Positions 6,531 through 49,880 of a DNA stretch of 64,000 nucleotides are shown here, piece after piece. The position numbers and the translations under genes are program-made. Source of the DNA: Zygnema cylindricum (lineage: Eukaryota; Streptophyta; Zygnematophyceae; Zygnematales; Zygnemataceae); NCBI GenBank assembly GCA_037447655.1, contig JBBHKE010001844.1, positions 104,936 through 168,935 on the forward strand, read 5' to 3'. The notes under the pieces are model-generated. The model did not search any database. It saw only the letters and a program-made list of their open reading frames with translations, and had not been told where the DNA came from. Each line of letters opens with the position of its first letter. Position 1 is the stretch's first letter.

Positions 6531-6554
6531 CGGAGCTGAGGCTCCAAGAAAACC

Positions 6555-23217: not shown

Positions 23218-23341
23218 ATGGTCGTGGTTGTTGGCTCCCGCAAACAAATTATTCAGTTTGCCGGCATCTTTGCTATTCTCTGTGTAAATTTTTTTACTGG
23301 GCGAGTATCGGCTGTCGTGACAACGTCTCCACAAAGACATT
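23218..23341 (+). CDS. Mosaic gene exon 1: signal peptide
   Basis: ATG at 23218 opens [10 protein letters not shown] (basic n-region), then a hydrophobic [16 protein letters not shown] core and a small-residue GRVSA cleavage site. The likely donor GTATGT at 23342 leaves phase 1, which matches every following module. Read without splicing, the frame stops at 23396. This is the only convincing start of the locus. Confidence 0.75.
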
Positions 23342-26300
23342 GTATGTTCAATCAGCTTTTCCCAGTTGTGTCCGTATTTGACATGTGACAATTGAAGCAC
23401 CAAAAGGTGTAGAGACTATTTCTGTTCTTTGTTAGACAGTACCAAAAAATGAACCATTTAGAATACTGTATAGGCATTTTTGTGTTGTATTTCTACATCA
23501 GAGAAGCTCAACAGTTTGTAGCTGGCAGCACAGCACCCCAGACAGATTTTTCCAGTGTTGAATAAAAGTGCCACACGCATCATGCAGTTTGTGACTTGAT
23601 AAAGGTAATGGAATAGATTTTGATTCCAATTCCCGTCTCATGTACTTTGGGAAATGTTTTGGGGTTTATATTCAGTCAACTTTTAGTATTGGTAAATCAC
23701 TCTTGACTGTGATGGGATGTTAGCTTCAACTTTATCTTCTCGAGTGTATTAATGTTATCACTAATGTTTTACCTGTTCGTGTGGTTGAAATTGCTGTATA
23801 GGAGCAGTTGCTATTTGTATGAGTGACTCAGATCAACAACTGTCGTGGTTTTATTTTCAAGTTAATTATCCCATGGGCCGTCCAGCGTACCAGAGCAGCA
23901 CGTACAAATTTTATTTTCTCGTGTTGAGCTCGATGTGTACAGCTATTATTCTGAATCAATTTTACCATGAAGTTTAATCTTAAAATATGTAAAATGAAGA
24001 AAAATGTGTGAAGGTGTCAAGGGATAATTATTTAGAGATGTGGTAAGGCACAATGTTATTGTTGTTGTTATTATATTGTTTTTTATAGGCTCTTTCCTTT
24101 CATTCGTCTTCTGGCTAAAGTATATATTAACAGTTTCTGTCGAGTCTTTTTCACTATGTAGATGCTCAAGCGTGCAAGGCAATGCAGTACTCTTACACTG
24201 GTTATCCCAACATGGATGCTTACGGAAATGATATTTCATATTATTATGGGAACGTAACAATTTGTCAACGGAAGTGCACAGAGGACTGCGCCTGTAGAGG
24301 GTTTAGGATGATAAATGATCAAGAATGTTTTACAAAGTCAAATACTGATCGATCCACTTGGACGGACGTGGGTGGCGGTTTTTTGTACATAAAAAATCCA
24401 AGTACGTTTTTTATTTTCTGTTGGATTGAACTTCTTCTGCTGATTCACTAAATCAAGCATTTGGGCCGAGAACTTTGTTTGCAGTTCTATTATCTTTATC
24501 TCTTCCTTTGGGAAACATGCATTCATATTAACACCCCCGATAAAAATCGTCATGAATAAAAGTTTAGTTGAAATTACCTTGTAAGACTTGGAATTTACTA
24601 TTAGATTGTGCAAAACGTAAAACTATTCTTTTATGACAAATCGAGGTCCTTGTGTTTGCTCTCACGCCCATTTTCCTCTGAAACACACATAATGAAAGTT
24701 AAAATGACTTCCTAGATAGATAATGAAAGTTAAAATGACCTCTTAGACAGATATCGGTGACTACATTCATCTAGTTGTCCTCCCAATGCAAGAATGGTAT
24801 GTTTTCTATAGTATGGAATGGTAAACTTGATGTCCGATTTGTTTATGGACACCTGGCTCAAATCGGATGGCGATAAACTGCACGGACATGGGTCATTGGT
24901 CATATGCATTAACCCGAAAGTTGGTGCGATTTGGCGGACCCAATAGGGTAATTTGATTGAATTTTAAGGTTTTGGATCATCGAAGATCAATCGCTGTCCA
25001 GAGAGCATTCTGGATGATAATCAAATTAATTGGAAAATAATCTAGGAACTAACTGGGTGATAGTAGAGTTCTCATAACTCAGTCACTACTGGAGTCCACT
25101 TATGAAGAATATTTTTTCTCACTTCAATTTTCATTTTGGTCCATACATTCATTTTGTAATTGTTGCTGAAGATTACGGGTTTGGCGTATGATGCCTTATT
25201 GAGACCCTTGAATGTTGCATATTAAAAGTGAAGTCAATCTTGATTTTTTTTTGTAAAACGTGGTCAAAACAACTCAGATCTTTCTGACTTGATTGGTAAC
25301 AAGGGTTGGTTACTGGCAGATGCCACCCAAAAAGGTGATTTTACAGGCACCATACCCCTTGAAAACTCGCAACTGTAGATTATAAAACGTACCACTCCTA
25401 GCTACAAAAAAAACCTTCTTGAATGTAATTCTTGATCAGAGAAGCTCAACAATTTGTAGCTGGAAGCATAGCACCCAAGACAGATTTCCAGTGTTGAATA
25501 AAAGTCACACACCTAGCTCATGGTGTGTAGTTTGTGACTTGATTAACATAATGGAATAGATTTTGATTCAAATTTTCATCTCGTGTACTCTGGTACTTGT
25601 TTTCGGATTTATATTTAGTCGATTTTGATTATTGGTAAACCGCTCTTGAATATGATGTAATGTTAGCTTCAATTTTATCTTCTCGAGCGTATTTATGTCA
25701 TCACTACTGCTTTGTTGTTTATCTGTTCATGTGGTTGCTGTCGCTGTAAAGGAGCAGTTGCCATTTGTATTAGTGACTCAGATCAACAACTGTTTTGGTT
25801 TTTTTTTCTAGTTAATTATGCCATGGGACGTCGGACGTACCAGAGCAGCACCTCCAACTTATCCGGATTCACATATCCGGCAAGTCTTGCAGTTGACGGC
25901 GAGCCAAGTGGAGACTTCCTTGACCGCAGCTGTACGCTTACTAATATTAATGGCGAAACTGACCCATGGTGGATGGTGGACCTCGGGAAACCCTCACAAA
26001 TTGAGAAGGTGGAGTTATGGAACCGGGACGAATACATAGATGCATTGGCTGGGGTTCAAGTATGGGTGGGAACAAGCAACCAAAGGTGGGATGCCGGAGG
26101 AAACAAAGAATGTGATTCTTCCAATTATTACGATGGATCATGGGATGGCAGACCCTTCACAAAGACATGCTTGACCTCCGGCCGTTATGTATGGGTACGC
26201 CTAAGCGGTCAATATAAAGTATTATCACTATGCGAAGTTCGTGTTTATGGCTATGGTGAGTTGGAAGATGCTATTTCAAACAAAGCAACCAGACATGTTA

Positions 26301-29300
26301 AATCAAATTCTTGTATGATATTACATCCATCGATTGTAATCCATCGTAATTAGGTGCGAACACAATTTTGTGCTTATCATGAGCGCCAAATCAGGGTAGG
26401 ATTATGAATAGCAGGAAATTGAGGTTATGCTTGTCACAAGTTGCCAAGGCAAATCCTATTGATCCTCGTATGTCTTGGTGCATGTATATAGGTATTTACC
26501 TTATCTGTCTTTTGTATGGCAACATTTTATTTTCTTGTGTTGAGCTCAACGTGTACAACTAGTGTTTTGAATCAATTTTACGTGAAATTAATATCAAACA
26601 TGTAAAATGAGGATAAATGTGTCAGGGTGTTAAGGGATAATAATGAAAGATATGTTAAAGGACAATGTTATTATTGTATTTTTATACAGGTTATTTCTGT
26701 TTCTTTCATTTGTTGGCTAAAGTGTACATTTAACAGTTTCTGTCGAGTCATTTTCACCTTGCAGATACTCAAGCATGCAGAGATATGCAGTACTCTTACA
26801 CCGGTTATCCCAACATGGATGCTTCCGGAAATGACATAGCATATTATTATGGGAACTTTTCGTTTTGTCAAAAGAAGTGCACAGAGGACTGCGCCTGTAC
26901 AGGTTTGAGGATGATAAATGATCAAGAATGTTTTACAAAGTCGAATACCGATCGATCCACTTGGACGGACGTGGGTGGCGGTTTTTTGTACATAAAAAAT
27001 CCAAGTAGGTGTTTTATTTTCTGTTGTATTGAACTGCTTCTGCTGATTCACTAAATCAAGAATGTGAGCCCAGAACTTTGTTTGCGGTTCTATTATCTTT
27101 ATCTCTTCCTTTGGGAATCATGCATTCATATTAACACCCCCGATAAAAATCGTTATGAATAGTAGTTTAATTGAAATTACCTTGTAAGACTTGGAATTTA
27201 CTATTAGATTGTGCAAAACGTAAAACTATTATTTTATGACAAATCGAGGTCCTTGTGTTTGCTTTCACGCCTTTTTTCCTCTGAAACACACATAATGAAA
27301 GTTAAAATGACCTCTTCGACAAATATCGCGGACTCCTTTCATCTAGTTTTCTTCCCAATGTAATTTGATTGATTTTTAAGGTTTTGGACGGATCTTGCTC
27401 AGCGAAGATCAATCGCTGTCCAGAGAGCATTTGGATGATAATCACATTATTTGAAATAATCTAGGAATTCAATAGGTAATAGTGGAGTTCACATAGCCCG
27501 GTCACTATTGGAGTCCACTTATATAACCATGTTATTCTCACGTCAATGTTTGTTTTGGTCCATACATTGATTCAATTTGTAATTGTTGTTGAAGATAGGG
27601 GTCTGGCATATGACATCCTGGTGTATGATGCCTTATTTAGACCCCTGCATGTTGCATATTAAAAGTGAAGTCCATATTGATTTATGTTTTGTAAAACGTG
27701 GTCAAAACAACTCGGATCTTTCTGACTTGATTGGTAGCATGAGTTGGCAGATCAATCCAAGGATGTGAATCTCAGGTGTAGATTTAATATGTCCCACTCC
27801 TAGACGAAATTTTTCTGTGGGAAAGACGTGTTTAAAACCTCCCTTGTCATGTAATTTGATTGCTACAAGGCCGATTAGCTGCATATATCAGTAGCTCGAA
27901 CAACAATACTTGGCTTTAACACTTCAAACTATTTCAATTGTAGCCACTAAACTGAATCTAGTGATTCTATTGTCATATTAAAAGTTTGTCGCACAGTGAC
28001 TTATGCCGACTTTAGCGTTGATGTACACTCAAATTACATCAGCCTGGACTTGCAAGACAGAAGTTGTGCTTTCCTAAAATCTGCATTGTAGTCTTGTTTA
28101 TTATTGAACACTGAAATTTTAGTGTGCTTCTCACTGCCGTCGGTGAAATAGAAAACCTAATTCATAGCATATGTATGATACTGTCTCACATCATAATTTC
28201 TGAGATTTAGTAAAACTGCAAAACCTTGATTCCACTACAATGCGAGTCGAACCACTGATAAACTTTGTTTTTGCCCTTGTGACTTTATAATACTATATAA
28301 GTTTGTACGTGCCTTCTACTTATCTACTTTCCTTGCTTTTGGTGTTGTACGGTCAACAAATGTCATCCATCAGGTTACTCAACATTCACATTTACGCGAT
28401 TTAATGAACCCGCTGCTGCTTAACTTTTTTGGATCATCTCAACTTAAATCCTCCCGAATTCAGCTTACACCGGCTACTAGTGATCAAGGTGGTCAAGCAT
28501 TGTACAAGAGCTCTGTCCCTCTTCTACGAGATAGTGACATTAATGGGTGTCAAGCAGCTTCATTTAGTCTGCAGTTCTCATTTAGTATATACAACGACAA
28601 CAAAGCATGCCATGCCGATGGCTTTGCCTTCAACATTCTTGGTTCAAACATAGACTTCTCCAAACTGGGTGGCACCGGTGAAAAATTCGGTCTGCAGTAT
28701 ACAGGTCTGCCAGTTGTGGGTAGTGCAAGCATTGTTTTTGACACTTATGTCAACTACTACGATCCTCCAGGAAGATATGTGGGCATACGTGAAAAATTTG
28801 TCTTCGAGCCAGTGACATACAACTTGACAAACATTTTAGATGATTTTAATTCGTCTACCAAGTATGCATGGGCGGATTATGATAGTACACGTCAAATTTT
28901 GCAAGTATACCTCAGCAATAAGAACTCAAAGCCAGCAACGCCATTGCTTACTTACAGCAAATCCCTTTGCGAGTTGTTGAGGCCATCTGCCTGTGTCGCA
29001 TGCCAAACAGTTACTAGGGCATACGTTGGATTCTCGGCTGGAACTGGTCTTTGTGTCGACACTCATGAGATTCGCAGCTGGAAATTTGATAGCAGTTTCC
29101 CAGGTATTCTATTAAAGCCTCATCCTAAATTTTTTTTAGTTTTTTCTTGACCCTCCTTTTTTGTTAAATGTTAGCGTATGTAACAAATTCATCATAGCTT
29201 AAACACTAAGCATATATTTCTTTGAAGACCTCTACATGCGAATGAAAATTGGAATTACCGAGTATTAAGTGTTTTTTTGTCTTTGGCTCCAGTCAATTTT

Positions 29301-32300
29301 CCACCTCCGCCTCGAAACCCTCCATCACCACCTCGTCGTCCTCCTCCATCTCCCCCTATAAGGCTCACACCAAGTCCCCCAAGACCACCTCCTCCCCCCC
29401 CACCGGCACCATCCGGTTGGTTGTCAATTTCCTGTCTTGCCGTAATGCACACTAAGTTTGTAAGGCTGCTGTCAGGGTTTGATTGTGATGTCGTCAGAGT
29501 CACGCTACCTTGAATTCAGAGTGACCTGTGCCAAAAAAAATCACTCAACATACAAAACGTCTTGGTCTCATTATTTTTGAACCCCTCTAAAATTTAGGGT
29601 GTGCGTCTATTTTCCTTTTTTTTTGTTATTAGTTCATTTCCAGACAAAGATGCATGAATTCTCCAAGCTCTACTGGTAAAGTCAACCAACCTGCACCTGC
29701 TATTTTATAGACGGATGCACCTGTGGTCATCAATAATTGGATCTCCAATCGAGCATGTAATGGATAATATAGCTGTAAAATACCATACATGTTTGTGACA
29801 ACCTTGTACTTATCCACTTTTCTTCCTTTGGTATTGTATGGTCAAATGTCATTCATCAGATAACACGACATTCACATTTACGCAATTTGATGATCCAAAA
29901 AAGCTTATCCTTTATGGATCATCTCGACTCCTTTCCTCCCAACTTCAAGTTACATTTGATTACTGGCAAGGTGGACGAGCATTGTTCAAGGATTCAGTCC
30001 CACTTCTCCGAAAGAATCGCACTAATGGGTGCGAAGCAGCTTCATTTAACATGCAATTCTCTTTCCGCATCTACCACGACAACAAAACGTGCCATGGCGA
30101 TGGCTTTGCCTTCACCTTTCTTGGCTCAAACATAGACTTTTCCAAACTGGGAGGGTATGGTGATTCTATGGCACTGGCGTATACAAGTCAACCTGTTGTG
30201 GGTAGTGTTAGCATTGTTTTTGACACTTATGGCAATGAGTACGATCCTTCAGGAAGATACGTGGGCATACGTGAAAACTTTGTTGCTGCCCCAGTGACAT
30301 ACAACAGAACAACTATTTTGGATGATTTCAGTCCGTCCACCAAGTATGCATGGGTGGATTACGATGGTGCACGCTAGATTTTGCAAGTGTACCTCAACAC
30401 TGAGAATGCTAGGCCAGCGACGCCTTTGCTTACATACAAAAAATCCCTTTGCGAGTTGCTGAGGCCATCTGCCTGTGCCGCATGCCAAACAGTTACTAGG
30501 GCATACGTTGGATTCGGAGCTGGAACTGGTCTTTGTGTCGACACTCATGAGATTCAGAGTTGGAGTTTTGAAAGCAGTTTCACAGGTATTTATTAAGTCT
30601 TACTGAAGAATGTGATTATTTTCCTTTTTCCAACTTATGGAAGTTCTTCTATGCTGAACTTAATCACACATTTGGTTGGTCAATCAATCTAAATTCCCGT
30701 GGATGACCTTAAAAATCACTTATATACTCCGGTTTGCAAAAAATTTCATACAACGGTGGATGTGAACCTGTTTTTCACATGAAATAATCAAATATGATAA
30801 GTTTTTATATTGTTAGACAACTGCAAATTTATCACACACTCGTGTAGCTTGCTCTCTTTGACAAGTGGCCATTAAAAAAAAAAAAAATTGATAGCCATAA
30901 TTTTTGACAACATTATAGACTTCTGCATTTTTCTTTTTTTTGTCGTAGGGTAATCAAACATAGGTGTCGGGGGTCAAAGAGTGAGAACATAGGAAATCTA
31001 AATTCTTGGTGCTGGTAATGAAAAAATGTTAGATCAAAGTCTAATGACCAGAATCTGAATAGTAACTTTCATTTCTCAATTGTTCCTTGCACAGGCTGCG
31101 TGATGGCGCCAAAAGTTCTTTTTCCAATGAGAAGTCAAATTGAAAATTTTAAATAACCTGCAAACACGAATTTGGTTGAGTATTCATGGAGCCCTGTCAT
31201 GTGGCATGATGTTTGACACTTTCTCCTTTTGGTATGGCAGTGTACGCTCTTGGTCTAGATGATGCACAACCGTCAACCAACTCTGCAGGCTTTAGTCCTT
31301 ATTTCTTTCATGCGAGCGTCGGCTATTTTTGGGGTTTTAATAGGCCTATATGGACCCTTTATACATCTTGGGATTGGTCGCCTATCCTATCACCAGTGAA
31401 AGACCAAGGTGCCTGTAGTAAGTACATTCTAAACTTTTTGCAGCTGGAAATTAGTTGTTTTTTGTTTTGTCTTGATATTCGCCAATGCCACAAAATATTG
31501 TAGTATTTTTCTATTATTTTTAGGATATTTCCCAGTTTGAAGGTGTAAGTGAAGCTTAAATAAATGAGGATTTTTTTTGAATTATTTATCTTCTCAAAGA
31601 ACCACATACCAAACTTGTCTAAAGTGGCTTTTTATTGAATCTTAAAATATTTTAAATGAGACGACCAAAAGGCTTTTGGAAGACGAAACATATTAATTTT
31701 GTAAGCTTATTTTATCATTTCAAAACCAATGGAGTAAAATTAAGTCAATTTATACTTATGGTTTTCAATATTCTCCATAGGAAGCTTTTGAATCCTACAA
31801 AAAACATAAATTGGTCAAAAGAATCCACCCAAAACGATTAATATTACTTTGTAATCTCACAACTTAGGACTAGAGGAAATTTCGACAAATGAAATCGTTG
31901 GGATTCATTCACAAGGGACATAAACAAACAGTTGATACACACTTTAGGATTCTCGTCGTTCATTTGTTTCCTATTTGTTCATTTTCAATTCTCCAATGTC
32001 CCACGTTGTCCTTCTATGTGACTATAGAATACGTTTATCAACGTTGTACTCAGCCCAAGGGATCTAATGGATCATAAGGTGATGTTCAATATCCAAGTCA
32101 TTTCTTTATGTCATCCACAATCTAATAGGAGAGCATCCACAATGTGCCATTCCCTTGTGCAGGAAGCTGTTGGGTCTATGCTACAATAGGCGCTATAGAA
32201 AGTGTATACTACATCGCTAATGGATTACAGTTGACGAAACCCCCTATTTTCTCGGAGCAACAAGTGGCCCGTTGCCTCAACAGGGGTTGTGACGATAGCG

Positions 32301-41300: not shown

Positions 41301-44300
41301 CATGCGTATGCAAATTATAGGAGGGTCGGGGGTCTGCGGCATCAACACCCTACCAGGACTAATTCCAGTTGTTAAGGCTTCAGGTACTTCATTTTTTTGA
41401 GGTTCATTGTGGCTCCGGCGATTATATAACTTGAACGAGCTAAAATGTTACTATTGCTGAATACGACAATAAAACAAAAAGCTCTTTAATTTAATGCCAA
41501 AGACCGCTTAGTTGGCTGCATGGAACAGTAAGGGGATGTGAAACAGTAATCTAGAAGTGTGCCCTACGGTCATTTGTTTGGTCGGATGTTAGTCAATAAA
41601 GGAGGAATTCTTTCTCTCGAAAAGTATAAGTAGGAACCTTGTACTTGAGAAAAATGTGAGGAAAGAAAGTGCAAAATCATCAGATGTAGCTTTACGCATC
41701 GGTGAGGCTCAGTAAGCTCTTGTACGCAACAAGTAAACTGATGACACTTGCATTTAGTAGATAGCCTCTCTGATTCTTCCAAGTCTTATCAAGTATCATG
41801 CTACCATTACTCAGAAAGTTCTATAGCACAAAGTTTGAGTTGACTGAGTTGAAGTCAGTAAGTCTTACTAAGTCTAGCAAGTACAGTTTGGAATATATTT
41901 GCTGTAGTTATTAAAGAAGGATGCATGCTCAACACAATAAAAAATCTTAAGTACGAATTTTCTAGTGGTGAAACTAGGATTAATGGTGAGCAAACTATGA
42001 TGAAATATAACGCGTCCTTAATTCCTGGTCATAAAATAACCTGTTCTATGCTCTTAAAAATTGTGTATATAAGTTGATTCGCTGTACATTTTGTACGGCT
42101 GGTGATACTGGCATCTCAATTGTTCGCCTATTACCGACATGTCGATGTTGTTTTCAGAGGCATCAGTCAAACTTCTCAATTTGATTCTTGATTTTTCACC
42201 ACGAGCGAGAGGAACTACCTAAGCTTCTCAATGTTTCTGTAAACTGTTCAGGATCATCGCTTTTCTAAACAGAACGGCCGTTCAGGGAGCTGATTTGAAA
42301 ATCCTCAACAATACTATTTCTGCAAGTCAGTGTTGTGCCGAATGCAAATTTCAACCTGGCTGTGTCACATTCACCTTCAACACAGCCACGGGCTTATGCC
42401 GACTGAAGGCGTCACGAGGGGTGAACGTTCCAGACAACCGATCTATTTCAGGGATGCCGGTTTCAGGTAAGCCTCTGTCGAAAGTTGGGAACACGAGCAG
42501 CTTTTGTTACCTTCTTTTTTTGGTGGACCTTCCTTCACAAACCATCTTGCTGGGCAAAGTAGTTGGTGCTCAACAAAGTGGTTAAGATGTGGATCGTCCC
42601 AATTATTGAGGATAATAGTTGTGCCTGTTGCTTAGAAAAGAACCTTCAGTACAATATATATAGGTGTGCAGCTAACATCTGTAGCTACTTATATTGGGTT
42701 TGCTTATTGGGTTTGTTTTTACATAACAGAAAATGATCCGTGCAACTTGGTAAACATTGACACATTCAGAGGTGGAAATAATCAGTTCCCTGGAAGGATG
42801 AATCCATGTGGGGGTGGAAGTTGCACTCCTGTGGGTAAAACATACACGTGTCAATGTCCGGCTAACTTCACCGTTGTCACAAACAGCGACAAAACACAAG
42901 CATGTGCACCAGGTTCGTTTCCAACCTTGCAAAGATTTTGGGTATGTCCTTTTACGATGTTTATCACTGAATCTAGCAAAAGATGTTATTAATTTCCTAC
43001 ACATTTTTGTATTCAATGTGTGGATGGATGACATCCGTTGAACCACAACAACACATTCCAACTTTGTGCATTAGGTGAGTACCCAATCTTGTGCTTTTGT
43101 CTGGCAAGTTAAAGGATTGTGTAAAAAAACCAATTGGCAAAAACCTGCTGCCTATTCCATGCTCTATATTCATGAATTGTGTTCATAAGCAAGAATGTAA
43201 ATTAGGCAAAAAACTTCCTTGCATAGTAAACTCAAATTCTTGAAATGGGTTTTATTGTCAATAGAAGTTTGGTGCCAAAGTTTTATGATCATCTTCCTCG
43301 GTTCCCAGTATTTAATAAGAGAATTTTGATATTCTGTGGTTTATGCACGTGAGAAAAGTAATTTGCTTGTTTCACTAAAATGGCGAAGGTGAGGAAAATT
43401 TCAAATTCGTCCATTTTTTGACTGGGGGACTTGCCATACTTCACATTGTTGTAAAAATCAACAGGAGAAAGATCAAGAGTAAAAATCTCATTGTAGCTTT
43501 GTTTGTACGTGATGATATTCTAGACTCCTAAGCATTTTTCATAGTTTGCGCATTCTTATAGGTATTGCAAATGTGGTGATTAGTTTTACAATTGAAACTG
43601 TTTGGAGGATTTATAAATTTAGAGCTCATATTTAATAATTTTATAAGTTTGAAGGATTTACAATGCTATTGAGGATAATTGAGCAACACCAGAAAGATTC
43701 TGCCAGACATATCCTGGTTTACTACTCTTGTATTTCTCACTGATGACTTCAGTTAGTTCTCTGTTAAAATACTGCAGTATCTCCATGTACGTTTACCGAC
43801 AAAAATCCATGCGACACAGGAGAATGTGTGGACTCCAACAATCCACCTGGGAGCTACACGTGTATCTGTCCCCTCGGCTATGTTATGGACGCATCGGAAG
43901 GTCCAGTTACTTGTGCATTCGGTATACCTCTCCACTTCCATTCCCCCATGTTAATCCCAACGGATGGTAGTTGATGTTGTTAACAGAAGACCTGGGTTCA
44001 TTGTCCACAGGCTTTCAAATGTCAATTTTGCTTTTGTTGTGGTTTTTGTTGTAGCCTCCACTGTCATGGGACGGCAATCATACACCATACCAATCCTTCC
44101 ATCCCTCCTTTCCTCCCTCTCCCAATCGTAAATTATGTTTTAGTTTTGGTTTTTGTTGTAAACTCCACTGTCAGACCACAATTCTTCACCATAACAACCC
44201 CTACACCCCCTTTCGCTGCCTCCCTCTCTCCTTCCGTCCCTCCCCTCCCTCTCCTGATTGGAAATATGTTTTTGTTCTGGTTTTTGTTGTAGCCGCCACT

Positions 44301-47300
44301 CTCAGTGGACCGTTAAGTTACACTATACCAGATGGCTTCAATTTCAGCTGCGCCGAGATCAGTCGGGCTCATGGGCTTAATTTGACGGACTTCCAAAAGC
44401 AAAATCCGGTAGGCTATGTATCCAATCTTCAGTAGAAAGATTAGAAAGTGAGAGTTGCAGTCTTTTAACTATAATTAAGGATCCAATTATGAGAAACTGT
44501 CTGATTTATTCGGCTGGGTGTGTTGGGCTGGGTGTGGCAGAAACTCAGTTGTGCAAGTCGTCTTGTTGCAAAGACAGTTTTGAATGTTACAAATGCTCGC
44601 CCTTGTGGACTTTCTTATAGAGTCAACAATGTGAGTAGAACCAGACATATTTATTCAACCTCATGTTTGTTCTACCCTTCATTTTCATGCGGTGTGTGCG
44701 TTTTCTTTTTTGACGAAACCAGCCTGTCAACACTACTTGGCAGCTTCAATGACAACTTGAAGAGATGGGAAGTGCAAAACATTTTGTGACATGTCTATTA
44801 ATTTTTCTGGCATTCATGTTCTGATCAATATTTTTTTCATGCGAAAAATAAATAAACGCGCAACACGATTTGCAATAACTACCTTATATTCTGCACCGGG
44901 CAACTAGCACAGTCCACACTGTTATTATAGTGATAGTCCACACTATTATCATAGTAAAGACGATGTGGTCCCCGCTAAATAAGCTTTAGGATATACGGTA
45001 TAAAAAGAAATATATTGGGATTTATCCCATATGTTGTGTGGATCGGTAAATTTTGATGTGGAAAACTAGTGTGGTCCTAACTAATCACAATGTTAAATAT
45101 AAGTTGCCATTTTCAAATTTCTACACATCTGAAAATTTGTTTTTACTTATTTTTCTTTGATGATTTGGATGCATCTACTCCTATTTGTTTGTGTTTCGTT
45201 TTTTGCCAGATGTGGGGAGGTATACACACACTTATGATTTATAAAGTGCCTTGTAGTTTTTTGTCAAAATTCTAAAGTATCCTGCAACCATTCAAGTGAA
45301 TTCTTTTGCATCAAATTCCTCAAAATTTCATTGTGGTTTAAGAGTCTTGTTTCGATGTTGACTAGCTTAATACCAGCTGGATTGCGGTCGTTGTTGATCT
45401 GACTGGTTTTTCATTACCGTAGACCGATACCTGCGCGTCCATTAGTCTCCTGTTTGGACTCTCTTCAATCAGTGGAAAAAACTCTCCCAACCCGGATCTT
45501 GACTGCAATACCCTCCAACCTAGACAACAGGTACTTTGCCTTCTGTTTAACTTTAGTTTTGGTCATGTCTTTTTGGGAAAGCACTCTTCTATCGACTCCG
45601 TATACTCCGTTAGCATACAAATATATCATACTCTTCATACAAAAAAACTTAACTTCTGCTTTTTCTTCTTCTTTTTGATTTCTCCACCATCAACCAAATC
45701 TCGATGAAGCATTCTTGAAAAGATAGTTTTTTCCACGAGTTATATGCCTCTGACATGTTGCACTTATGTTTTTCCAAGGCACCTACTGCAAAGTGTCAAA
45801 ATAAATTAACAAAAATTACATAACAAACGCGCCAATGTGAAGAGACCATATGCACAAATCATATTCTAACGGAAGAATAAACAACTTTCCACATTGCCCA
45901 ACCATGAAAACTTCAGATGATTTGTAGATTATTTATAGATTGTTGTCATTGATAGTACACTACGATGAATTTGTTTGTGCTTTACAATGCTCCGTAAAGT
46001 CCATGAAAGTACGTTTTTCTACAGAGTATTTTAGTTCGACTTTTAGCAAAAATTCTTGTGGTGACGGTTTTACTTTGGTTGCCATCGATTAAGGAAAATA
46101 GGCTCGGTAGTTTCATTGCCCACATTTTTCTCTCTCTGAAAATCAGGTGGTCTTCTTTCAATGTCACCCTTCGTTTAACATCCACCCGTATTAACTGAAA
46201 ATAAGTCAGGCGTTCCCTAGTTGCATTGTTTTAATATTGTTGCTAAGTGGATTTTTCGTCAATAGTTCAAAACTTTGAAAAGTACGCACGGAATTTTTCA
46301 GAATACCAGCAAAAGAAGACGCCAACCTATTCTGTGGACTCAAATCATCCCGTAAATGTCACCCGAAGAAAGTCAAGTGTCTAAAATGCAAAAAAATAAT
46401 TATTGGGCTGCTCCTGAGTTCATCAGGGCATATGTCAAGGGTATTCATTAAAGCCATGAAATTACAATCTATTCGACAGTCAACGTATGATGAATATGAA
46501 TCTCTTGTAAGCTGTCTCGACTCTCTACAATATCCAAAAACAAACTTGGGTTCACGCTGTAATGTTTCTCAACGACAGATGCTTTCCATTTGCAAATGAC
46601 ATTTTTTTTCCTAAAGTCTAAGAGGCAAAGGAAAAAGAAATGGAAGTTCTCCGACATAATCTAGGCGTTTTCTTATAACAAGCGGCATAGTCACTGCTCT
46701 AGGGCAATTAAACTATCAGTTTGGGTATTGCATGGTAGTGGTAACAGAAAAGTGATAAAACAGAAATATTACGAAAACGGAGAAATATCTAAAAGTAAAT
46801 TATAGATTTTGGCGAAAGAAAACTGACACTTCCAGGACTACACCCTAGTGAAAGTTTTACTTGTAGTGACCGTTGAGAAGTTCACAAGCATGACCACTGT
46901 TTCGGACTGCTAACAGAGTAATACATACCCATAATCTTTACATTGTACCACCATCGTTTAGAGCTAAACAACTGTAGGGCAGTCAAAGGCCTTTAGCTTT
47001 GTGGTTGGCCAGTGGATTTGCATACTGAGACAAGCAATCGAAAGGTAACAGGCATACCCTTCGATTGTGATGTCACGGTTGAAAATCGGAAAACTGTGTG
47101 ATGTAAATAAGTGCTTTGACTGCCCGAAAAATGTTTAACTCTTATATCAATCGGCGGTGTAACTAGAACAAACAATTTTAGCAAAAATAGCTCTTTACAG
47201 GTTTTATTCACTCAACAATTGATTTTGCAGGTGTGTGCTTTTAGGAGTCGAGTAAATCCACCCGGACCGTGTACTAATTGGTACAGCATGAAATCTGGAG

Positions 47301-47425
47301 AGACCTGCAGTTCAGTGATAAAAGATAAGCTACGAGGTAATGGCACTCTCTTCTATTTGCTCAATCCTGGAATTTACTGTGACGCCTTTTTTTCGGAAGG
47401 AGCAAGCGTTCTGGGTCCGAGACAG
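23218..47425 (+). CDS. Giant mosaic secreted lectin-protease-LysM gene (exon chain)
   Basis: Exon-by-exon reading gives, in order: signal peptide, PAN, fucolectin/F5-8C, PAN, L-type lectin, proline-rich, L-type lectin, papain-like protease (4 exons), PAN, EGF, then lectin, proline-rich, lectin, protease, PAN and EGF again, a further EGF and three LysM motifs. Most module borders are phase 1 and successive phases agree, which supports one transcript. The protein would be secreted and could bind fucose, other glycans and chitin-like polymers. Weak points: the PAN exons at 34.1 and 42.3 kb have unresolved acceptors, protease exon 3 has an ambiguous frame, and the first lectin pair carries a frameshift and a stop. 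The chain could be two or more genes. No membrane span, kinase or final stop was found; it may continue beyond 47425. Confidence 0.6.
23862..23903 (+). pseudogene. Stub of a deleted F5-8C/fucolectin exon
   Basis: After an acceptor (TTTTCAAG) the stub reads [13 protein letters not shown], matching [13 protein letters not shown] at the start of the intact exon at 25812. It then jumps straight into sequence matching 26520 onward. No donor follows, so it cannot act as the original exon. Confidence 0.75.
24162..24401 (+). CDS. Mosaic gene: PAN/apple-like exon 1
   Basis: A 240-bp exon in phase 1-1 (acceptor TATGTAG, donor GTACGT). It encodes [19 protein letters not shown], then [19 protein letters not shown] and ECFTK, the Cys pattern of a PAN/apple-type (or WSC-like) extracellular binding domain. 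PAN domains bind proteins or carbohydrates. Eight of every ten residues match the exon at 26765, so the two arose by tandem duplication. The symmetric phase lets it be skipped or duplicated without frame loss. Confidence 0.75.
24402..25811 (+). other. Intron with sequence repeated after later exons
   Basis: GTCAAAACAACTC followed by (G/A)ATCTTTCTGACTTGATTGG and other segments recur after the PAN exon at 26765 and after the EGF exon at 34586. The introns were duplicated along with the exons. No coding signal inside. Confidence 0.7.
25812..26255 (+). CDS. Mosaic gene: fucolectin/F5-8C-type domain exon
   Basis: A 444-bp exon in phase 1-1 (acceptor TTTTTTTCTAG, donor GTGAGT). It starts [16 protein letters not shown], then [17 protein letters not shown] (core strand), VELWNRDEY and GVQVWVG, ending CEVRVYGYG. 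This is the jelly-roll signature of the fucolectin (FTP)/discoidin family, about 148 residues, a full-length domain. Such domains bind fucose or other glycans; the Arg-Asp in NRDEY may be part of a ligand or metal site. The exon is intact, unlike its deleted counterpart at 23862. Confidence 0.85.
26765..27004 (+). CDS. Mosaic gene: PAN/apple-like exon 2
   Basis: A 240-bp phase 1-1 exon (acceptor TTGCAG, donor GTAGGT). It encodes [39 protein letters not shown] and ECFTK. Close duplicate of 24162-24401. All cysteines are kept. Confidence 0.75.
27005..28373 (+). other. Intron before the first lectin exon
   Basis: The first half resembles 24402-25430 and 34989-36000. The second half resembles the sequence upstream of the lectin exon at 36522. 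No coding signal seen. Confidence 0.65.
28374..29103 (+). pseudogene. Mosaic gene: L-type lectin exon L1, +1 frameshift
   Basis: A 730-bp exon, one base longer than the intact L3 (36522-37250, 729 bp). It enters in phase 1 and reads [12 protein letters not shown], then hits a stop after a GCTGCTGCT run near 28407. The correct frame resumes as GSSQLKSS. The rest is a normal legume-lectin-like domain: [25 protein letters not shown] (the metal-binding Asp and Asn, then the DP), [15 protein letters not shown] and [10 protein letters not shown]. Exit phase is 1. The extra base may be real or an assembly error. Skipping this symmetric exon would keep the frame. Confidence 0.8.
29293..29415 (+). CDS. 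Mosaic gene: proline-rich linker exon (copy 1)
   Basis: A 123-bp phase 1-1 exon (acceptor GGCTCCAG, donor GTTGGT). It encodes [19 protein letters not shown] repeats and a final run of seven prolines: an extended Ser/Pro segment like cell-wall hydroxyproline-rich proteins. It likely forms a stiff, glycosylated spacer between the two lectin domains. The minus-strand glycine-rich frame here is only its shadow. Confidence 0.8.
29860..30585 (+). pseudogene. Mosaic gene: L-type lectin exon L2, nonsense codon
   Basis: A 726-bp phase 1-1 exon beginning [12 protein letters not shown]. The lectin features are complete ([42 protein letters not shown]), but codon TAG at 30375-30377 replaces the CAG (Gln) found in the matching L4 exon, within the ARQILQVY strand. 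Unless the exon is skipped, the product would end here. FAA in place of FVF (29,5xx numbering aside, near 30285) is another difference from L4. Confidence 0.85.
30586..31240 (+). other. Intron between lectin and protease exons (copy 1)
   Basis: AT-rich, with an A-run near 30873 and a T-run near 30932. No coding signal. A 3-base (ACA) difference to copy 2 lies near 30818. Confidence 0.7.
31241..31417 (+). CDS. Mosaic gene: papain-like protease exon 1 (copy 1)
   Basis: A 177-bp phase 1-1 exon (acceptor TATGGCAG, donor GTAAGT). It ends [15 protein letters not shown], the start of the mature C1A fold, with the oxyanion-hole Gln in KDQGAC. Residues before DWS show no ERFNIN/GNFD prodomain pattern, so the protease module seems to lack a classical inhibitory propeptide. 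The split before SCW falls just before the catalytic Cys. Confidence 0.85.
32163..32386 (+). CDS. Mosaic gene: papain-like protease exon 2 (copy 1), catalytic Cys
   Basis: Acceptor TTGTGCAG; the joined codon is AGA (Arg), giving [22 protein letters not shown] holds the catalytic Cys; the usual Gly before it is Arg. Downstream SEQQVARCL and [11 protein letters not shown] match the EQ..DC and GC.GG.P region of papain. The donor may be GTAGGT at 32387 (phase 0) or GTAAAA at 32416 (phase 2). Confidence 0.8.
32587..32908 (+). CDS. Mosaic gene: papain-like protease exon 3 (copy 1), 5' border unsure
   Basis: The 3' part is clear: [18 protein letters not shown], then [19 protein letters not shown], ending at donor GTACAA in phase 0. 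It matches the papain strand that runs from the LL.AV..QPV segment. The 5' part is ambiguous. One frame ([13 protein letters not shown]) runs into stops at 32741, and the good frame has a TAA at about 32728, beside a five-A run. Both copies share this, so either a small intron is used or an old frameshift predates the duplication. Confidence 0.6.
33011..33239 (+). CDS. Mosaic gene: papain-like protease exon 4 (copy 1), catalytic His and Asn
   Basis: A 229-bp exon, phase 0 in and 1 out. [14 protein letters not shown] holds the catalytic His and [19 protein letters not shown] the catalytic Asn, with the usual WG..WG.-.GY C1A ending and GVCGIN before the tail. With Gln and Cys in earlier exons all four catalytic positions are present. 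Confidence 0.9.
33240..34107 (+). other. Intron with a possible alternative terminal exon
   Basis: An acceptor TTGTTTTCAG at 34013 opens a frame in matching phase 1 that reads [20 protein letters not shown] and stops (TAA, 34076). Copy 2 keeps it (42158-42222). It could end a shorter protein just after the protease. Otherwise nothing is seen. Confidence 0.4.
34108..34322 (+). CDS. Mosaic gene: PAN/apple exon 3 (copy 1)
   Basis: The clear part reads [20 protein letters not shown], then [13 protein letters not shown] and [10 protein letters not shown], a typical apple/PAN core (CC..C...C...F.....C.LK). The donor GTAAGC at 34323 leaves phase 1. No acceptor gives the expected phase-1 entry; candidates are at 34107 (phase 2) and 34141 (phase 0). 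Confidence 0.7.
34586..34768 (+). CDS. Mosaic gene: EGF-like exon (copy 1)
   Basis: A 183-bp phase 1-1 exon (acceptor ACATAACAG, donor GTTCGT). It encodes [12 protein letters not shown], then [20 protein letters not shown] and ANFTVV, ending ACAP. Six-plus cysteines in EGF order. EGF modules act as spacers or protein-binding units in extracellular proteins. Confidence 0.8.
34769..36521 (+). other. Intron between the two large repeats
   Basis: About 34989-36000 aligns with the introns after the PAN exons (24402 and 27005), and the rest with the intron before L1. It marks the join of the tandem duplication. No coding signal. Confidence 0.7.
36522..37250 (+). CDS. Mosaic gene: L-type lectin exon L3 (intact)
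   Basis: A 729-bp phase 1-1 exon (acceptor ATTTATCAG, donor GTATTC), open throughout. It encodes a complete legume-lectin-like domain of about 243 residues: [42 protein letters not shown] with the metal-binding Asp/Asn, [16 protein letters not shown], and the closing [12 protein letters not shown] and HEIRSWKF. Extra cysteines (CELL, ACVACQ) are a local feature. Expected to bind glycans with Ca/Mn. L-type lectins occur in plant receptor kinases; no kinase is seen here. Confidence 0.88.
37440..37562 (+). CDS. Mosaic gene: proline-rich linker exon (copy 2)
   Basis: Identical to 29293-29415, with the same splice sites and 1-1 phase. It separates L3 and L4. Confidence 0.8.
38007..38732 (+). CDS. 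Mosaic gene: L-type lectin exon L4 (intact)
   Basis: A 726-bp phase 1-1 exon, open throughout. It encodes [54 protein letters not shown] (with the Gln codon that is a stop in L2), [12 protein letters not shown] and [11 protein letters not shown]. About 242 residues, complete. Same fold and expected metal-dependent glycan binding as L3, but the binding-loop residues differ, so specificity may differ. Confidence 0.88.
38733..39384 (+). other. Intron between lectin and protease exons (copy 2)
   Basis: Near-identical to 30586-31240. No coding signal. Confidence 0.7.
39385..39561 (+). CDS. Mosaic gene: papain-like protease exon 1 (copy 2)
   Basis: Identical in protein to 31241-31417: ends [15 protein letters not shown]. 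Phase 1-1. Confidence 0.85.
40307..40530 (+). CDS. Mosaic gene: papain-like protease exon 2 (copy 2), catalytic Cys
   Basis: Same as 32163-32386: [14 protein letters not shown] with the catalytic Cys and Arg in place of Gly before it. The same donor ambiguity exists (40531 or 40560). Confidence 0.8.
40731..41052 (+). CDS. Mosaic gene: papain-like protease exon 3 (copy 2), 5' border unsure
   Basis: Same features as 32587-32908, including the unresolved frame change next to the A-run near 40870. The clear 3' part runs to [12 protein letters not shown], donor GTACAA at 41053. Confidence 0.6.
41155..41383 (+). CDS. Mosaic gene: papain-like protease exon 4 (copy 2), catalytic His and Asn
   Basis: Same as 33011-33239 apart from a Met-to-Ile change (MQIIGGSG). 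The His ([10 protein letters not shown]) and Asn (RNSWGASWG) are kept. Confidence 0.9.
41384..42251 (+). other. Intron, copy 2 of 33240-34107
   Basis: Contains the matching possible terminal exon at 42158-42222 ([20 protein letters not shown], then stop). Nothing else seen. Confidence 0.4.
42252..42466 (+). CDS. Mosaic gene: PAN/apple exon 4 (copy 2)
   Basis: Same as 34108-34322 except for small changes (LNNTIS for LNKTIS). The acceptor is equally unresolved; the donor leaves phase 1. Confidence 0.7.
42730..42912 (+). CDS. Mosaic gene: EGF-like exon (copy 2)
   Basis: Identical in protein to 34586-34768; phase 1-1. Here it joins another EGF exon at 43778 rather than a lectin. Confidence 0.8.
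42913..43777 (+). other. Intron
   Basis: Unique sequence after 43132, where the large repeat ends. No coding signal. Confidence 0.6.
43778..43921 (+). CDS. Mosaic gene: EGF-like exon 3
   Basis: A 144-bp phase 1-1 exon (acceptor ATACTGCAG, donor GTATAC). It encodes [20 protein letters not shown], then [15 protein letters not shown] and VTCAF: a compact calcium-binding-like EGF pattern with six cysteines. It links the PAN/EGF part to the LysM part. Confidence 0.85.
44030..44292 (+). repeat. Three tandem copies of a LysM exon acceptor
   Basis: GGTTTTTGTTGTA(G/A) followed by (C/A)(C/A)NCCACTNTCA occurs at about 44040, 44148 and 44278. Only the last opens into the real LysM exon. The first keeps the AG and the start of the coding ([12 protein letters not shown]) then goes out of frame; the second has lost the AG. 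CT-rich DNA lies between. Confidence 0.8.
44293..44408 (+). CDS. Mosaic gene: LysM1, first half
   Basis: A 116-bp exon, phase 1 in and 0 out (acceptor TTGTTGTAG, donor GTAGGC). [20 protein letters not shown] and [11 protein letters not shown] have the YTI..G.....I....G....L...NP shape of LysM, a GlcNAc-polymer-binding motif (chitin, peptidoglycan, lipochitooligosaccharide). Continues at 44541. Confidence 0.8.
44541..44630 (+). CDS. Mosaic gene: end of LysM1 and start of LysM2
   Basis: A 90-bp phase 0-0 exon (acceptor GTGTGGCAG, donor GTGAGT): [16 protein letters not shown] completes LysM1, and CGLSYRVNN begins LysM2. The phases and the cross-exon sense fit well, although the exon is small. 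Confidence 0.7.
45423..45530 (+). CDS. Mosaic gene: LysM2, second half
   Basis: A 108-bp phase 0-0 exon (acceptor TTACCGTAG, donor GTACTT): [20 protein letters not shown], then [15 protein letters not shown], closing with VC from the next exon. This is the canonical DTC..I...FG....L...NP.LDC..L.P.Q.VC of LysM. Confidence 0.85.
45531..47230 (+). other. Long intron inside the LysM region
   Basis: 1.7 kb of AT-rich sequence with no recognisable coding signal or repeat. Confidence 0.6.
47231..47425 (+). CDS. Mosaic gene: LysM3 exon (last recognised)
   Basis: A 195-bp phase 0-0 exon (acceptor TGATTTTGCAG, donor GTAATC). VCAF closes LysM2; [17 protein letters not shown] then LLNPGIYCD and VLGPRQ form LysM3. 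A following exon should start with VC, but none was found up to 53 kb, so the 3' end is unknown. Confidence 0.85.
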
Positions 47426-47941
47426 GTAATCTTTGACCCATTTCCAACCTACCCATTTATAAAAAAGACATCGATAAGGCTTTTTCCCTCGGGTTCTCAC
47501 ATTCCCATAACCTCAACAAAGTTCTTTAATGTCTCCTTGCCTCACGGTGTGAATACTTGTTTTGCTACTCTCTTTTTTTACTGCCATAATCTCATACTTG
47601 AGATAGTCAATTATCCGAGTTTATGTTGTGACACACATTATACTTCCGATTATATTTGCTTACAAATGTGTGTATTTTTTTCACTCATTCGTTTTTGCAT
47701 TCTGTTCCACATAGAAAAACTGTAGGTTGAAGAGTTTAATGACAGGACAAGATCTTTTAAGTTTCTCTGTTTACATCGTAACTTTCACTGCAAAAACATA
47801 TAGGAAGCTTATTCGCATGGTTATCTCACAAGACAGAGTAACAAATTGTGATTTGGGAAAAGACGAGCCTATTCAGACTGTTGATGCATAGATTATTTAT
47901 TCGTTCCTGCCCGACAAAAACATAAACGTTTCATTTCACAG

Positions 47942-48260: not shown

Positions 48261-48282
48261 AGAGGGACGTCCGTTTCAGCAT

Positions 48283-48286
48283 AGGA

Positions 48287-48330
<44 letters not shown>

Positions 48331-48760: not shown

Positions 48761-48769
48761 TCGTTCAAG

Positions 48770-49880
48770 GCTTTGAATAACTATACTTGCACCAATAAAA
48801 AACTGGCTGAGGTACTAAAGCTTAGTAAAGAACCTACTATTTGTGTTCCCAAATAGGGACAGTAAGAAACTCGAACAAGAATTCTTGAAGTTATGTTGAA
48901 CTGATTTTGAAAAGCTGGTAGGAAGGTGGAAGTACAAGATGGTAATGGGAGGAATGATTGCGTTGACGAGATCCTAAATATTTTGAAGAACTTGATTATT
49001 GACTAAACTTTCGTAAACTTGATTCTTTGTAAGTTGTGACAATTGCTCATTCTGTCTTTTTTTTGAGAGCCGACAGTTTGTGTATAAAAGTTTCAGTATA
49101 TCATAGAGATTAGTAGCTGATTGGTTGTATAATAGAGATTTCTCTAACTAAGATAGGAAAGACTAAGGGCTACGATTGTCGACTTATTGCCTTCCTTTTC
49201 TACATTGTGTTTCTATTCCCTTCGTATTCGCTTTGGCTATAAATGAAAGAAAAGGCGTTAAAGTTTGTATTTCATATACGGCATCACTAGTACGGATGCT
49301 TTTGTTTTTATTTTTTTTGTTTGTTTCTTTTGCAAAGTTTTCCAATTTTTATTTTCTTGACTCCATGTCGTAGAACATCACCACACGGGTAAAAAGATCC
49401 TGAGGGAGTGAGAAATGGAGAGGAACCGGGATAGGGAAAGAGATCGAGAGAGGGAGGAAGAGAAAAATCACGGGTGGGGCAAGAATTCGAAAGGGCCGCC
49501 TCATTAACTATTTTTAGATTACCAAAAATAAAATCTAAGAGGATGGGAATTTGGGGACCGTCCCATATTGAAGGAGGTGAAATAAAATGGAAAATAAAAT
49601 AAAAACCACGAGAAAATTTAATATTTGAGCCCTATGGGAGTTCCTTTAAGAAAAGGAACCTTAACCTCGAAATCTGACTCTGTTGTTTAAAAAAAAAAAG
49701 ATCTTCGACCCGACAAGAAAAAAAAAAATCTGATAAAAAAAAATTGATAAAAAAAATCATAATGGGTTTCCTCATGTCTTTACTTTTAGCGTTATGTCAT
49801 TTTAAAAGCTTTTGATACAGTTTCCGCCCAAAAAATGGGTGAAAATAACAAAAATGTCTTTAAAAAACTGCCCTCTGTAA
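48770..49880. other. Spacer
   Basis: No gene recognised. Purine-rich patch at 49405-49470. Confidence 0.5.

What the first reader, a model, noticed from the sequence alone, without database searches (positions are those of the whole stretch)
23218..47425. A giant mosaic gene joining three lectin classes, a papain-like protease, PAN, EGF and LysM domains
The sequence shows a chain of phase-matched exons: signal peptide, PAN, fucolectin/F5-8C, PAN, L-type lectin, proline-rich, L-type lectin, C1A protease, PAN, EGF (the last six repeated), EGF, three LysM. Each domain is known, but I know of no protein that combines L-type lectins, an internal papain domain and LysM. It could be a glycan sensor or wall-matrix protein that processes itself or its targets. 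This is my best candidate for an undescribed system.
Basis: partly seen in the sequence, partly recalled or inferred. Interest (0 to 1): 0.88.

Follow-up and report, generated by a model that had tools for sequence, protein, structure and literature searches.

The report
Algal lectin-papain-LysM mosaic gene family
A green alga related to land plants carries a family of apparently secreted proteins that fuse sugar-binding heads, a papain-type protein cutter and a wall-binding tail; the gene in this window is a scrambled and probably broken copy, and the family looks like an outer-surface recognition or defence tool.

Summary
The exon chain is real, and the lectin, papain (C1A), F5/8C, EGF, LysM and downstream PAN domains were confirmed; the upstream PANs are weak. 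The same order stands as a SINGLE unit on another contig, C569: signal peptide, F5/8C, PAN, F5/8C, PAN, L, L, C1A, PAN, EGF x3, LysM x4. So it is one gene type.

Corrections. (1) The repeated half is probably not a working architecture: units are joined by a 2,051-bp block identical to another locus, C2027. (2) The copy looks broken: frameshift and stop in unit 1's lectins, and the PAN after the protease is out of frame in both units if it uses its paralogs' splice site. (3) The combination is not unique: unnamed Closterium proteins carry lectin-C1A-LysM; Mesotaenium has LRR-C1A-EGF-LysM.

Lectin-then-C1A order recurs on 19 contigs. Two C1A exons change more slowly than the lectins (less clear against C569); 8 of 36 relatives have Ser for the catalytic Cys.

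Best reading (inferred): matrix-bound, glycan-guided protease family for recognition or defence. I found no paper describing it.

The parts
23218..23341 (+). Exon 1: start codon and likely signal peptide, ends phase 1
   Evidence: Hydrophobic N-terminus read from sequence; donor gtatgt; counterpart at C569 74% identical, E=1e-15
23768..23910 (+). Remnant of a deleted F5/8C exon (duplicate of 25718-25860)
   Evidence: Repeat 85%; C569 has two F5/8C-PAN pairs
24162..24401 (+). PAN-like exon a, phase 1-1
   Evidence: PAN_1 17.1 bits, under cut-off; 90% DNA identity to PAN b; conserved at C569
25812..26255 (+). F5/8C (F-type lectin fold) exon, phase 1-1
   Evidence: Pfam PF22633 3e-13; PDB FBP32 5.5e-29; 74 matches in own genome
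26765..27004 (+). PAN-like exon b, phase 1-1
   Evidence: no Pfam family at E up to 0.05, so named by its likeness to PAN a; conserved at C1824, C2027, C569
28374..29103 (+). L-type lectin exon 1 of unit 1, with a frameshift near 28410 (730 nt)
29293..29415 (+). Proline-rich linker exon, unit 1
   Evidence: counterparts read by eye in C587, C1824 and C2027
29860..30585 (+). L-type lectin exon 2 of unit 1, with in-frame TAG at 30375-30377
31241..33239 (+). C1A papain domain, unit 1: exons 31241-31417, 32163-32386, 32771-32908, 33011-33239
   Evidence: borders of exons 2 and 3 set by analogy with unit 2; differences from unit 2
34080..34322 (+). PAN exon c, unit 1; frame kept only with an acceptor 28 nt upstream of the one used by paralogs
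   Evidence: PAN_1 7.6e-9
34586..34768 (+). EGF exon, unit 1
   Evidence: EGF 9.7e-5
34990..37040 (+). 2,051-bp block exactly identical to C2027:303369-305419 that joins unit 1 to unit 2
   Evidence: TTGG microhomology at the left edge
36522..37250 (+). L-type lectin exon 1 of unit 2, open (first 519 bp lie in the C2027 block)
   Evidence: Lectin_legB 3.2e-31
37440..37562 (+). Proline-rich linker exon, unit 2
38007..38732 (+). L-type lectin exon 2 of unit 2, open
   Evidence: Lectin_legB 5.5e-32; PDB seed lectin 4u2a 3.1e-12
39385..41383 (+). C1A papain domain, unit 2: exons 39385-39561, 40307-40530, 40915-41052, 41155-41383
   Evidence: Peptidase_C1 1e-40 on the corrected join; PDB ficin 8r78 1.8e-30 with Q, C, H, N aligned (uncorrected join)
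42224..42466 (+). PAN exon c, unit 2; same frame problem as unit 1
42730..42912 (+). EGF exon, unit 2
43778..43921 (+). EGF exon 3
   Evidence: EGF 3.7e-5; 94% identical at C569
44293..44630 (+). LysM 1: exons 44293-44408 and 44541-44630
   Evidence: LysM 4.9e-9 on the joined tail, best stretch in LysM 1
45423..45530 (+). LysM 2 exon, phase 0
47231..47425 (+). LysM 3 exon, phase 0
   Evidence: No Pfam match alone; similar to relatives and paralogs
48764..48855 (+). Probable terminal exon: second half of LysM 4 and stop codon; CT-rich repeats stand where the first half is expected

Best explanation
This is one member of a family of mosaic proteins in a zygnematophyte-like green alga. The shared plan is: likely signal peptide, variable head (LRR in relatives; here F5/8C plus PAN-like modules), L-type lectin(s) with a proline-rich linker, a papain-type protease without the usual I29 propeptide, PAN/EGF, and a LysM tail. 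SHOWN by sequence: the domains, phase-1 exon modules, the same order at other loci and a similar order in other species, an intact Q/C/H/N protease site in the window and Cys or Ser at the active site among relatives, later C1A exons that change more slowly than the lectins, and no membrane-like segment in the last 120 residues of 10 relatives. INFERRED: the LysM tail holds the protein on GlcNAc-containing wall or microbial polymers, the fast-changing lectin head picks the target, and the tethered protease cuts proteins there: extracellular recognition or defence, with Cys-to-Ser members as non-cutting binders or decoys. The double unit in this window is a recent rearrangement or an assembly chimera on top of a single-unit gene, and this particular copy probably does not make an intact product.
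For: Domains. Near-complete single-unit paralog at C569: 19 local alignments to 15 different C569 exons hold no stop and its active-site exon is open. C1824 runs from F5/8C to EGF3, then the contig ends. Gene-order counts. Relatives with the same C-terminal order, including transcriptome ORFs P0032 and P0019. Fused C1A domains form one clade (100/98) in a tree of 41 rows (long branches, 7 outgroup rows). I29 (PF08246) is listed for 0 of the 36 family proteins; motif GxFGLLxAV in 34 of 37 family rows against 0 of 43 other fetched proteins, 11 of which list Peptidase_C1. dN/dS against C1824, C2027 and C587: C1A exons 2 and 4 0.17-0.27, LysM3 0.16, EGF 0.31; lectins 0.42-0.68, F5/8C 0.45-0.49. 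Catalytic residue in 36 relatives: Cys 26, Ser 8, not covered 2; the Ser members lie in three places of the tree.
Against: No transcript of this locus was seen. Lesions in the window: unit 1 lectins, PAN c of both units, LysM 4. Other copies are broken too: C1824 has a stop at the catalytic Cys codon and C587 a stop right after it and another in C1A exon 3; 4 of the 15 closest active-site exons carry stops. C587 shows only L-PRR-L-C1A: no F5/8C or PAN in the 6.7 kb upstream and no PAN, EGF or LysM in the 6 kb downstream. C2027 lacks PANc, EGF and EGF3 between C1A and LysM1. C1A exon 1 is not slow (0.49-0.66) and LysM2 is 0.5. Against the nearest paralog, C569, the contrast is blurred by small counts: C1A pieces 0.25-0.28, lectins 0.51-0.79, F5/8C 0.72, but EGF3 0.87, LysM1b 1.62, LysM2 1.08, PANc 0.57-0.88. 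The F5/8C exon lacks the fucose-site His and one Arg by alignment to FBP32 (sites recalled); the lectin keeps Asp/Asn/Asp but not the Glu and His of the metal site (sites recalled). Most matches may be ordinary papains. Binding and cleavage are untested.
Confidence: 0.45

Rival explanations
1. The window shows a true giant gene with two working units: a real tandem duplication, spliced into one protein with two lectin-lectin-protease units.
For: Units are 98.2% alike over 6.6 kb but differ after 28.88 kb by 38 substitutions and one 3-bp gap (counted), so unit 2 is not a pure reread of unit 1; the left junction has 4-bp microhomology, as in replication-based rearrangements.
Against: Unit 1 has a frameshift in one lectin exon and a stop in the other; both units share the PAN frame problem. 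C569, C1824 and C2027 show one unit. The 2,051-bp joining block has 0 differences from C2027 while the units differ by about 0.6%; about 13 differences would be expected if block and units arose in one event (own arithmetic).
Confidence: 0.12
2. The double unit is an assembly chimera: two alleles of one gene joined through a reused contig piece from C2027; the real locus has one unit.
For: Exact 2,051-bp block with sharp edges; other exact blocks of 539-659 bp between paralogs, the 659-bp one with flanks at 90-92%; no lectin match outside C1385 above 89% identity, so no separate allele contig was seen; native flanks match C569 at about 79-91% while the block matches at 70-82% in its main pieces.
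Against: Microhomology at the left edge is as expected of real breakage; gene conversion could also give exact blocks; reads are not available.
Confidence: 0.6
3. This copy is a pseudogene and makes no intact protein; other members of the family carry the function.
For: Frameshift and stop in unit 1 lectins, PAN c out of frame in both units with the paralogs' acceptor, first F5/8C deleted, LysM4 half missing. Other copies are broken as well (C1824, C587).
Against: Unit 2 lectins, all C1A exons and LysM 1-3 are open; C1A exons 2 and 4 and LysM3 show dN/dS under 0.3; an upstream acceptor would keep the PAN in frame.
Confidence: 0.55
4. The proteins are wall-matrix or mating/adhesion proteins in which the papain domain processes the protein itself or wall proteins; no defence role.
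For: Proline-rich linkers, EGF, PAN and lectins are common in matrix proteins (recalled); fast-changing binding heads also fit gamete recognition (inference).
Against: Many copies and repeated Cys-to-Ser replacement fit recognition or an arms race at least as well; not decisive.
Confidence: 0.3
5. Several separate neighbouring genes (lectin, protease, LysM) that only look joined.
For: Some loci hold only part of the chain (C587; C2027).
Against: Phase-compatible exons, the same order in other species on single predicted proteins and a C1A-EGF-LysM transcriptome ORF, and at C569.
Confidence: 0.07

Closest known systems
Unnamed Closterium proteins with Lectin_legB + Peptidase_C1 + LysM (P0012, P0013, P0014, P0034) and Mesotaenium LRR + C1 + EGF + LysM (P0023)
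   Same: Same order L-lectin (or LRR)-C1A-(EGF)-LysM (EGF over cut-off in P0012 and P0023, under it in P0014 and P0034, not listed for P0013); same family motifs in most
   Different: LRR heads in P0014, P0034 and P0023 instead of F5/8C + PAN; one lectin match or none; no PAN listed after the protease; Ser for the catalytic Cys in P0013, P0014, P0023, P0034
Papain-like cysteine proteases of plants (ficin, ananain, papain)
   Same: C1A by sequence, Q/C/H/N aligned
   Different: No I29 propeptide listed for the family; embedded in a mosaic protein
Fungal chimerolectin MOA (Marasmius oreades agglutinin; PMC4764322, PMC8244254, search listing only)
   Same: A sugar-binding module and an active papain-like protease in one protein: works like
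   Different: Different lectin fold and papain-like family; no LysM, EGF or PAN (recalled)
Tomato Rcr3 protease with the Cf-2 receptor-like protein (PMC7468133, search listing only)
   Same: Extracellular papain-like protease working with a receptor-like protein in recognition
   Different: Two separate proteins in tomato; in the Closterium and Mesotaenium relatives LRR and protease are one chain
LysM and L-lectin receptor-like proteins and kinases (PMC10834447, passages)
   Same: Same extracellular binding modules
   Different: No kinase family listed for the 36 relatives and no membrane-like segment in 10 tails; protease instead

Membership tests
Peptidase family C1A (papain) | Pfam Peptidase_C1 over cut-off across the domain | tested here: met
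   140.6 bits against 20.7, positions 3-214 of 220
Peptidase family C1A (papain) | Catalytic Gln, Cys, His, Asn | tested here: met
   All four aligned with ficin 3 and ervatamin C (site roles recalled)
Peptidase family C1A (papain) | I29 inhibitor propeptide in front of the domain (usual, not universal) | tested here: not met
   No I29 match in the lectin and C1A exons or in 8 relatives scanned; PF08246 listed for 0 of 36 family proteins; ERFNIN-like pattern 0 of 37
L-type (legume) lectin | Pfam Lectin_legB over cut-off, full length | tested here: met
   111.7 and 109.2 bits, unit 2 exons
L-type (legume) lectin | Ca/Mn and sugar-site residues | tested here: inconclusive
   DG, FDT, N, DP aligned; Glu to Val and His to Tyr at the metal site (site roles recalled)
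F-type lectin (fucolectin) | Match to known F-type lectin | tested here: met
   FBP32 3cqo 5.5e-29
F-type lectin (fucolectin) | Fucose-binding His and two Arg | tested here: not met
   His to Leu and the second Arg changed in the FBP32 alignment (residues recalled): F-type by sequence, fucose binding doubtful
Zygnematophyte C1A-EGF-LysM mosaic family (named here) | Order C1A-EGF-LysM and motif GxFGLLxAV | tested here: met
Plant receptor-like kinase / receptor-like protein | Transmembrane segment (and kinase) | tested here: not met
   In relatives: no kinase listed, highest 19-residue hydropathy in the last 120 aa of 10 relatives 1.51; the window's own tail is incomplete
MOA-type fungal chimerolectin | Beta-trefoil lectin plus MOA-type papain-like domain | tested here: not met
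   Pfam finds Lectin_legB and Peptidase_C1 instead
Secreted protein | Cleaved signal peptide | tested here: inconclusive
   Hydrophobic start conserved at C569; no dedicated predictor available

The most novel reading that the evidence does not exclude
[quoted passage not shown] Heads diversify by phase-1 exon shuffling over many loci, with frequent birth and death of copies, and members that replaced the catalytic Cys by Ser act as built-in decoys.
Probability: 0.2. Interest if true: 0.87.

Novelty: new variant of a known kind. Interest (0 to 1): 0.62.

Why it matters
If the family works as inferred, it shows how recognition modules and an immune-type protease were combined in the algae nearest to land plants, offers a testable ancestor-like or parallel solution to the split receptor/protease systems of land plants, and is a rich case of phase-1 exon shuffling outside animals. 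The correction matters too: the striking double-unit gene should not be taken at face value from this assembly.

Tried and rejected
Reassigned stop codon (TAG = Gln): considered for the TAG at 30375 and rejected; unit 2 is open at the same place and, by a hand count of the table, 48 of 54 lectin matches of at least 225 aa are open.

Terminal exons at 47717-47890 and 47942-48077: rejected, the frame is not kept at C2027 (read by eye). The LysM query still carried the first of them; one search repeated it without. C1A exon 2 end and exon 3 start were corrected after alignment with C1824 and C587; the C1A queries used the earlier join with intron-derived residues, another the corrected one. The acceptor I first chose for the PAN after C1A is not the one of the paralogs.

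Organism: not named by any tool; Zygnematophyceae is inferred from the relatives. The size (353 Mb) is near the 359.8 Mb of Zygnema cf. cylindricum SAG 698-1a, but the piece number differs (2,689 against 3,587; PMC9915684, passages). That paper reports 209 Pfam domain combinations unique to Zygnematophyceae; its tables were not seen, so this combination may be listed there.

Literature: searches listed no paper that describes the family, judged by titles and abstract starts of the 2 to 20 papers listed (one search found none; several searches had hundreds of hits of which only the top 10-20 were listed). Opened by 'find' passages only: PMC11289646, PMC10380794, PMC10834447, PMC9915684, PMC10318531. 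Search listing only: PMC7468133, PMC4764322, PMC8244254. No supplement was read.

Not done: catalytic-residue survey inside the own genome (loci could not be cut out); LysM and PAN counts (not completed); search for LRR exons in the own genome; structure prediction. One search scored only the 7,993 candidates sharing most words, so 'F5/8C with L-lectin seen only here' rests on a capped search.

Rows dropped: tree left out P0030, P0031, P0037 by length and used 4 of the later, non-family hits (P0041, P0042, P0044, P0046); motif and residue counts left out P0015 and P0029 as ordinary papains; one search used 79 of 110 lectin, 73 of 74 F5/8C and 108 of 108 C1A matches. Exact-block search compared held pieces on the plus strand only.

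Full report
What the window is. A eukaryotic stretch, contig C1385:104936-168935 of a 353-Mb genome. The nearest relatives of the gene are from Closterium and Mesotaenium, so the source is most likely a zygnematophyte alga (inferred; no tool names it).

The exon chain. Reading the sequence and joining exons by GT/AG borders and phase gives, with unit 1 left out, 18 exons from ATG 23218 to 47425: likely signal peptide, PAN-like, F5/8C, PAN-like, lectin, proline-rich, lectin, four C1A exons, PAN, EGF, EGF and four LysM exons. Exons up to EGF 3 are phase 1-1, apart from introns inside C1A; LysM exons are joined in phase 0. Pfam confirms the lectins, F5/8C, C1A, EGFs, LysM tail and the PAN after C1A; the first PAN-like exon is under the cut-off and the second matches nothing. 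Proteins of other species match the lectins, the C1A exons, the EGFs and LysM 2 and 3 by tblastn. A LysM 4 half-exon with a stop lies at 48764-48855.

A weak point. The PAN exon after C1A keeps frame only if it starts at a TAAG site upstream of the acceptor that C569 and C1824 use. From that shared acceptor both paralogs read on in phase, but both units of the window run into a stop. Both units therefore either use a different splice site or are out of frame.

Copies in the same genome. The lectin exon has 110 matches, F5/8C 74, the C1A active-site exon 108, and Peptidase_C1 gave 150 matches, the number scored out of 303 candidates; many of the C1A matches may be ordinary papains. Of 79 lectin matches used, 22 (on 12 contigs) have a C1A exon within 6 kb downstream on the same strand, 2 upstream, 0 on the other strand; about 0.07 expected; within 16 kb it is 35 of 79 on 19 contigs. 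F5/8C followed by lectin within 6 kb: 21 of 73, 1 upstream, 0 opposite. F5/8C-lectin-C1A in order occurs on C1482, C1687, C1773, C1824 (twice), C2027 and C569 besides the window. C569 (119501-120536 unread, but the active-site exon lies there and is open) has signal peptide, F5/8C, PAN, F5/8C, PAN, L, L, C1A, PAN, EGF, EGF3 twice, LysM 1-4; 19 local alignments to 15 of its exons hold no stop. C1824 runs from F5/8C to EGF3, then the contig ends, but it has a stop at the catalytic Cys codon. C587 shows only L-PRR-L-C1A in 20 kb and has stops in two C1A exons. C2027 lacks PAN and EGFs between C1A and LysM. Of the 15 closest active-site exons 4 carry stops. The proline-rich exon between the lectins was read by eye at C587, C1824 and C2027. 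So the plan is shared, but copies vary and many decay.

The repeat. Units 1 and 2 are 98.2% identical over 6.6 kb. The first 500 bp differ by about 13-15%; the remaining 6.1 kb differ by 38 substitutions and one 3-bp gap. Between them lies 34990-37040, identical over 2,051 bp to C2027:303369-305419, while both sides drop to ordinary paralog identity. The left edge is a non-homologous join with 4-bp microhomology TTGG; the right edge lies in the lectin exon where the copies agree. The native PAN-to-lectin intron (27.0-28.9 kb) matches C569 at 89.8% over its main piece, the foreign block at 70-82% in its main pieces; the sequence after EGF that continues like C569 and C1824 is that of unit 2. 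If units and block arose in one event, about 13 differences would be expected in the block; there are none. Either two alleles were joined in assembly through a reused piece of C2027, or a very recent template switch drew on the other allele. Smaller exact blocks between other paralogs (539-659 bp) fit gene conversion or contig reuse. Unit 1 is damaged in both lectin exons. The double-unit protein is unlikely to exist as drawn.

How the family probably works. The protease aligns with ficin and ervatamin with Q, C, H and N in place. No I29 propeptide is listed for the 36 family proteins. 30 of 37 family rows carry a short F-(R/H)-(Y/H)-A-S-x-G segment before the domain against 2 of 43 other fetched proteins, and 34 of 37 carry GxFGLLxAV against 0 of 43, of which 11 list Peptidase_C1 (patterns written after seeing the family, so descriptive). 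Against C1824, C2027 and C587, C1A exons 2 and 4 (0.17-0.27), LysM3 (0.16) and EGF (0.31) have lower dN/dS than lectins (0.42-0.68), F5/8C (0.45-0.49) and the upstream PAN (0.43-0.62); C1A exon 1 is 0.49-0.66 and LysM2 0.5; C1A exon 3 was not measured, two of these three loci are broken, and the lectin comparison with C2027 includes the shared block. Against C569 the C1A pieces are 0.25-0.28 and the lectins 0.51-0.79, but several small exons are as high or higher. This suggests, without proof, a conserved cutting core and a changing head. Among 36 family proteins the catalytic residue is Cys in 26, Ser in 8, not covered in 2; the Ser members sit in three places of a 41-row tree in which the fused C1A domains form one clade. 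The tails of 10 relatives show no membrane-like segment. I infer a secreted protein held by LysM to wall or microbial GlcNAc polymers, with lectin-type heads choosing targets and the protease acting locally, most likely in recognition or defence. Sugar specificity is unknown: fucose-site residues of the F5/8C exon are changed and the lectin metal site is altered.

Compared with the known. The C-terminal plan is not unique: 28 of 53 hits carry C1 plus Lectin_legB and 4 of these also LysM, all unnamed Closterium proteins (precomputed Pfam). P0014, P0034 (Closterium) and P0023 (Mesotaenium) carry LRR heads. Two transcriptome ORFs support single chains: P0032 has C1A, EGF and LysM over the cut-offs, P0019 has LRR and C1A over and LysM just under; its EGFs and LysMs are otherwise read by eye and by similarity. 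A search with the F5/8C-PAN-lectin part found 26 proteins, none with both F5/8C and Lectin_legB (capped candidates). Functional analogues are the fungal chimerolectin MOA and the tomato Rcr3/Cf-2 pair (search listings); neither has this architecture. No paper describing the family was found in searches.

Verdict. Interesting as a family; the gene as drawn is partly an artefact or a recent rearrangement and probably a broken copy. New variant of a known kind. On rechecking I lowered the main explanation from 0.5 to 0.45, the two-unit rival from 0.15 to 0.12, and raised the pseudogene rival from 0.35 to 0.55, because.

Noticed in passing
window 5586-9807 (+): ORFs that look like a Copia-type LTR retrotransposon (integrase, reverse transcriptase and RNase H motifs recognised by eye)
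   Followed up: no
window 48280-48750 and 63245-63790: Long CT-rich simple repeats; the first stands where the first half of LysM 4 is expected
   Followed up: partly
C2027:305912/C1824:101807 (659 bp), C2586:767450/C2027:393600 (613 bp), C1808:60934 and 61555/C575 (539, 563 bp): Exact blocks shared by paralogs (flanks of the first at 90-92%): gene conversion or reuse of short contigs in assembly
   Followed up: partly
own genome: Peptidase_C1 matched 150 places, all that were scored of 303 candidates: a large papain complement
   Followed up: partly
P0003, P0004, P0013, P0014, P0018, P0023, P0028, P0034: Papain domains with Ser in place of the catalytic Cys, in three separate places of the tree
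   Followed up: partly
C1824:105129 and C587:318791: Active-site exons with a stop at, or right after, the catalytic Cys codon: decaying copies
   Followed up: partly
window 17681-18418 (+): 245-aa open frame, family not searched
   Followed up: no
C569 tail (L049): EGF3 exon duplicated in tandem, both copies about 94% identical to the window's
   Followed up: no
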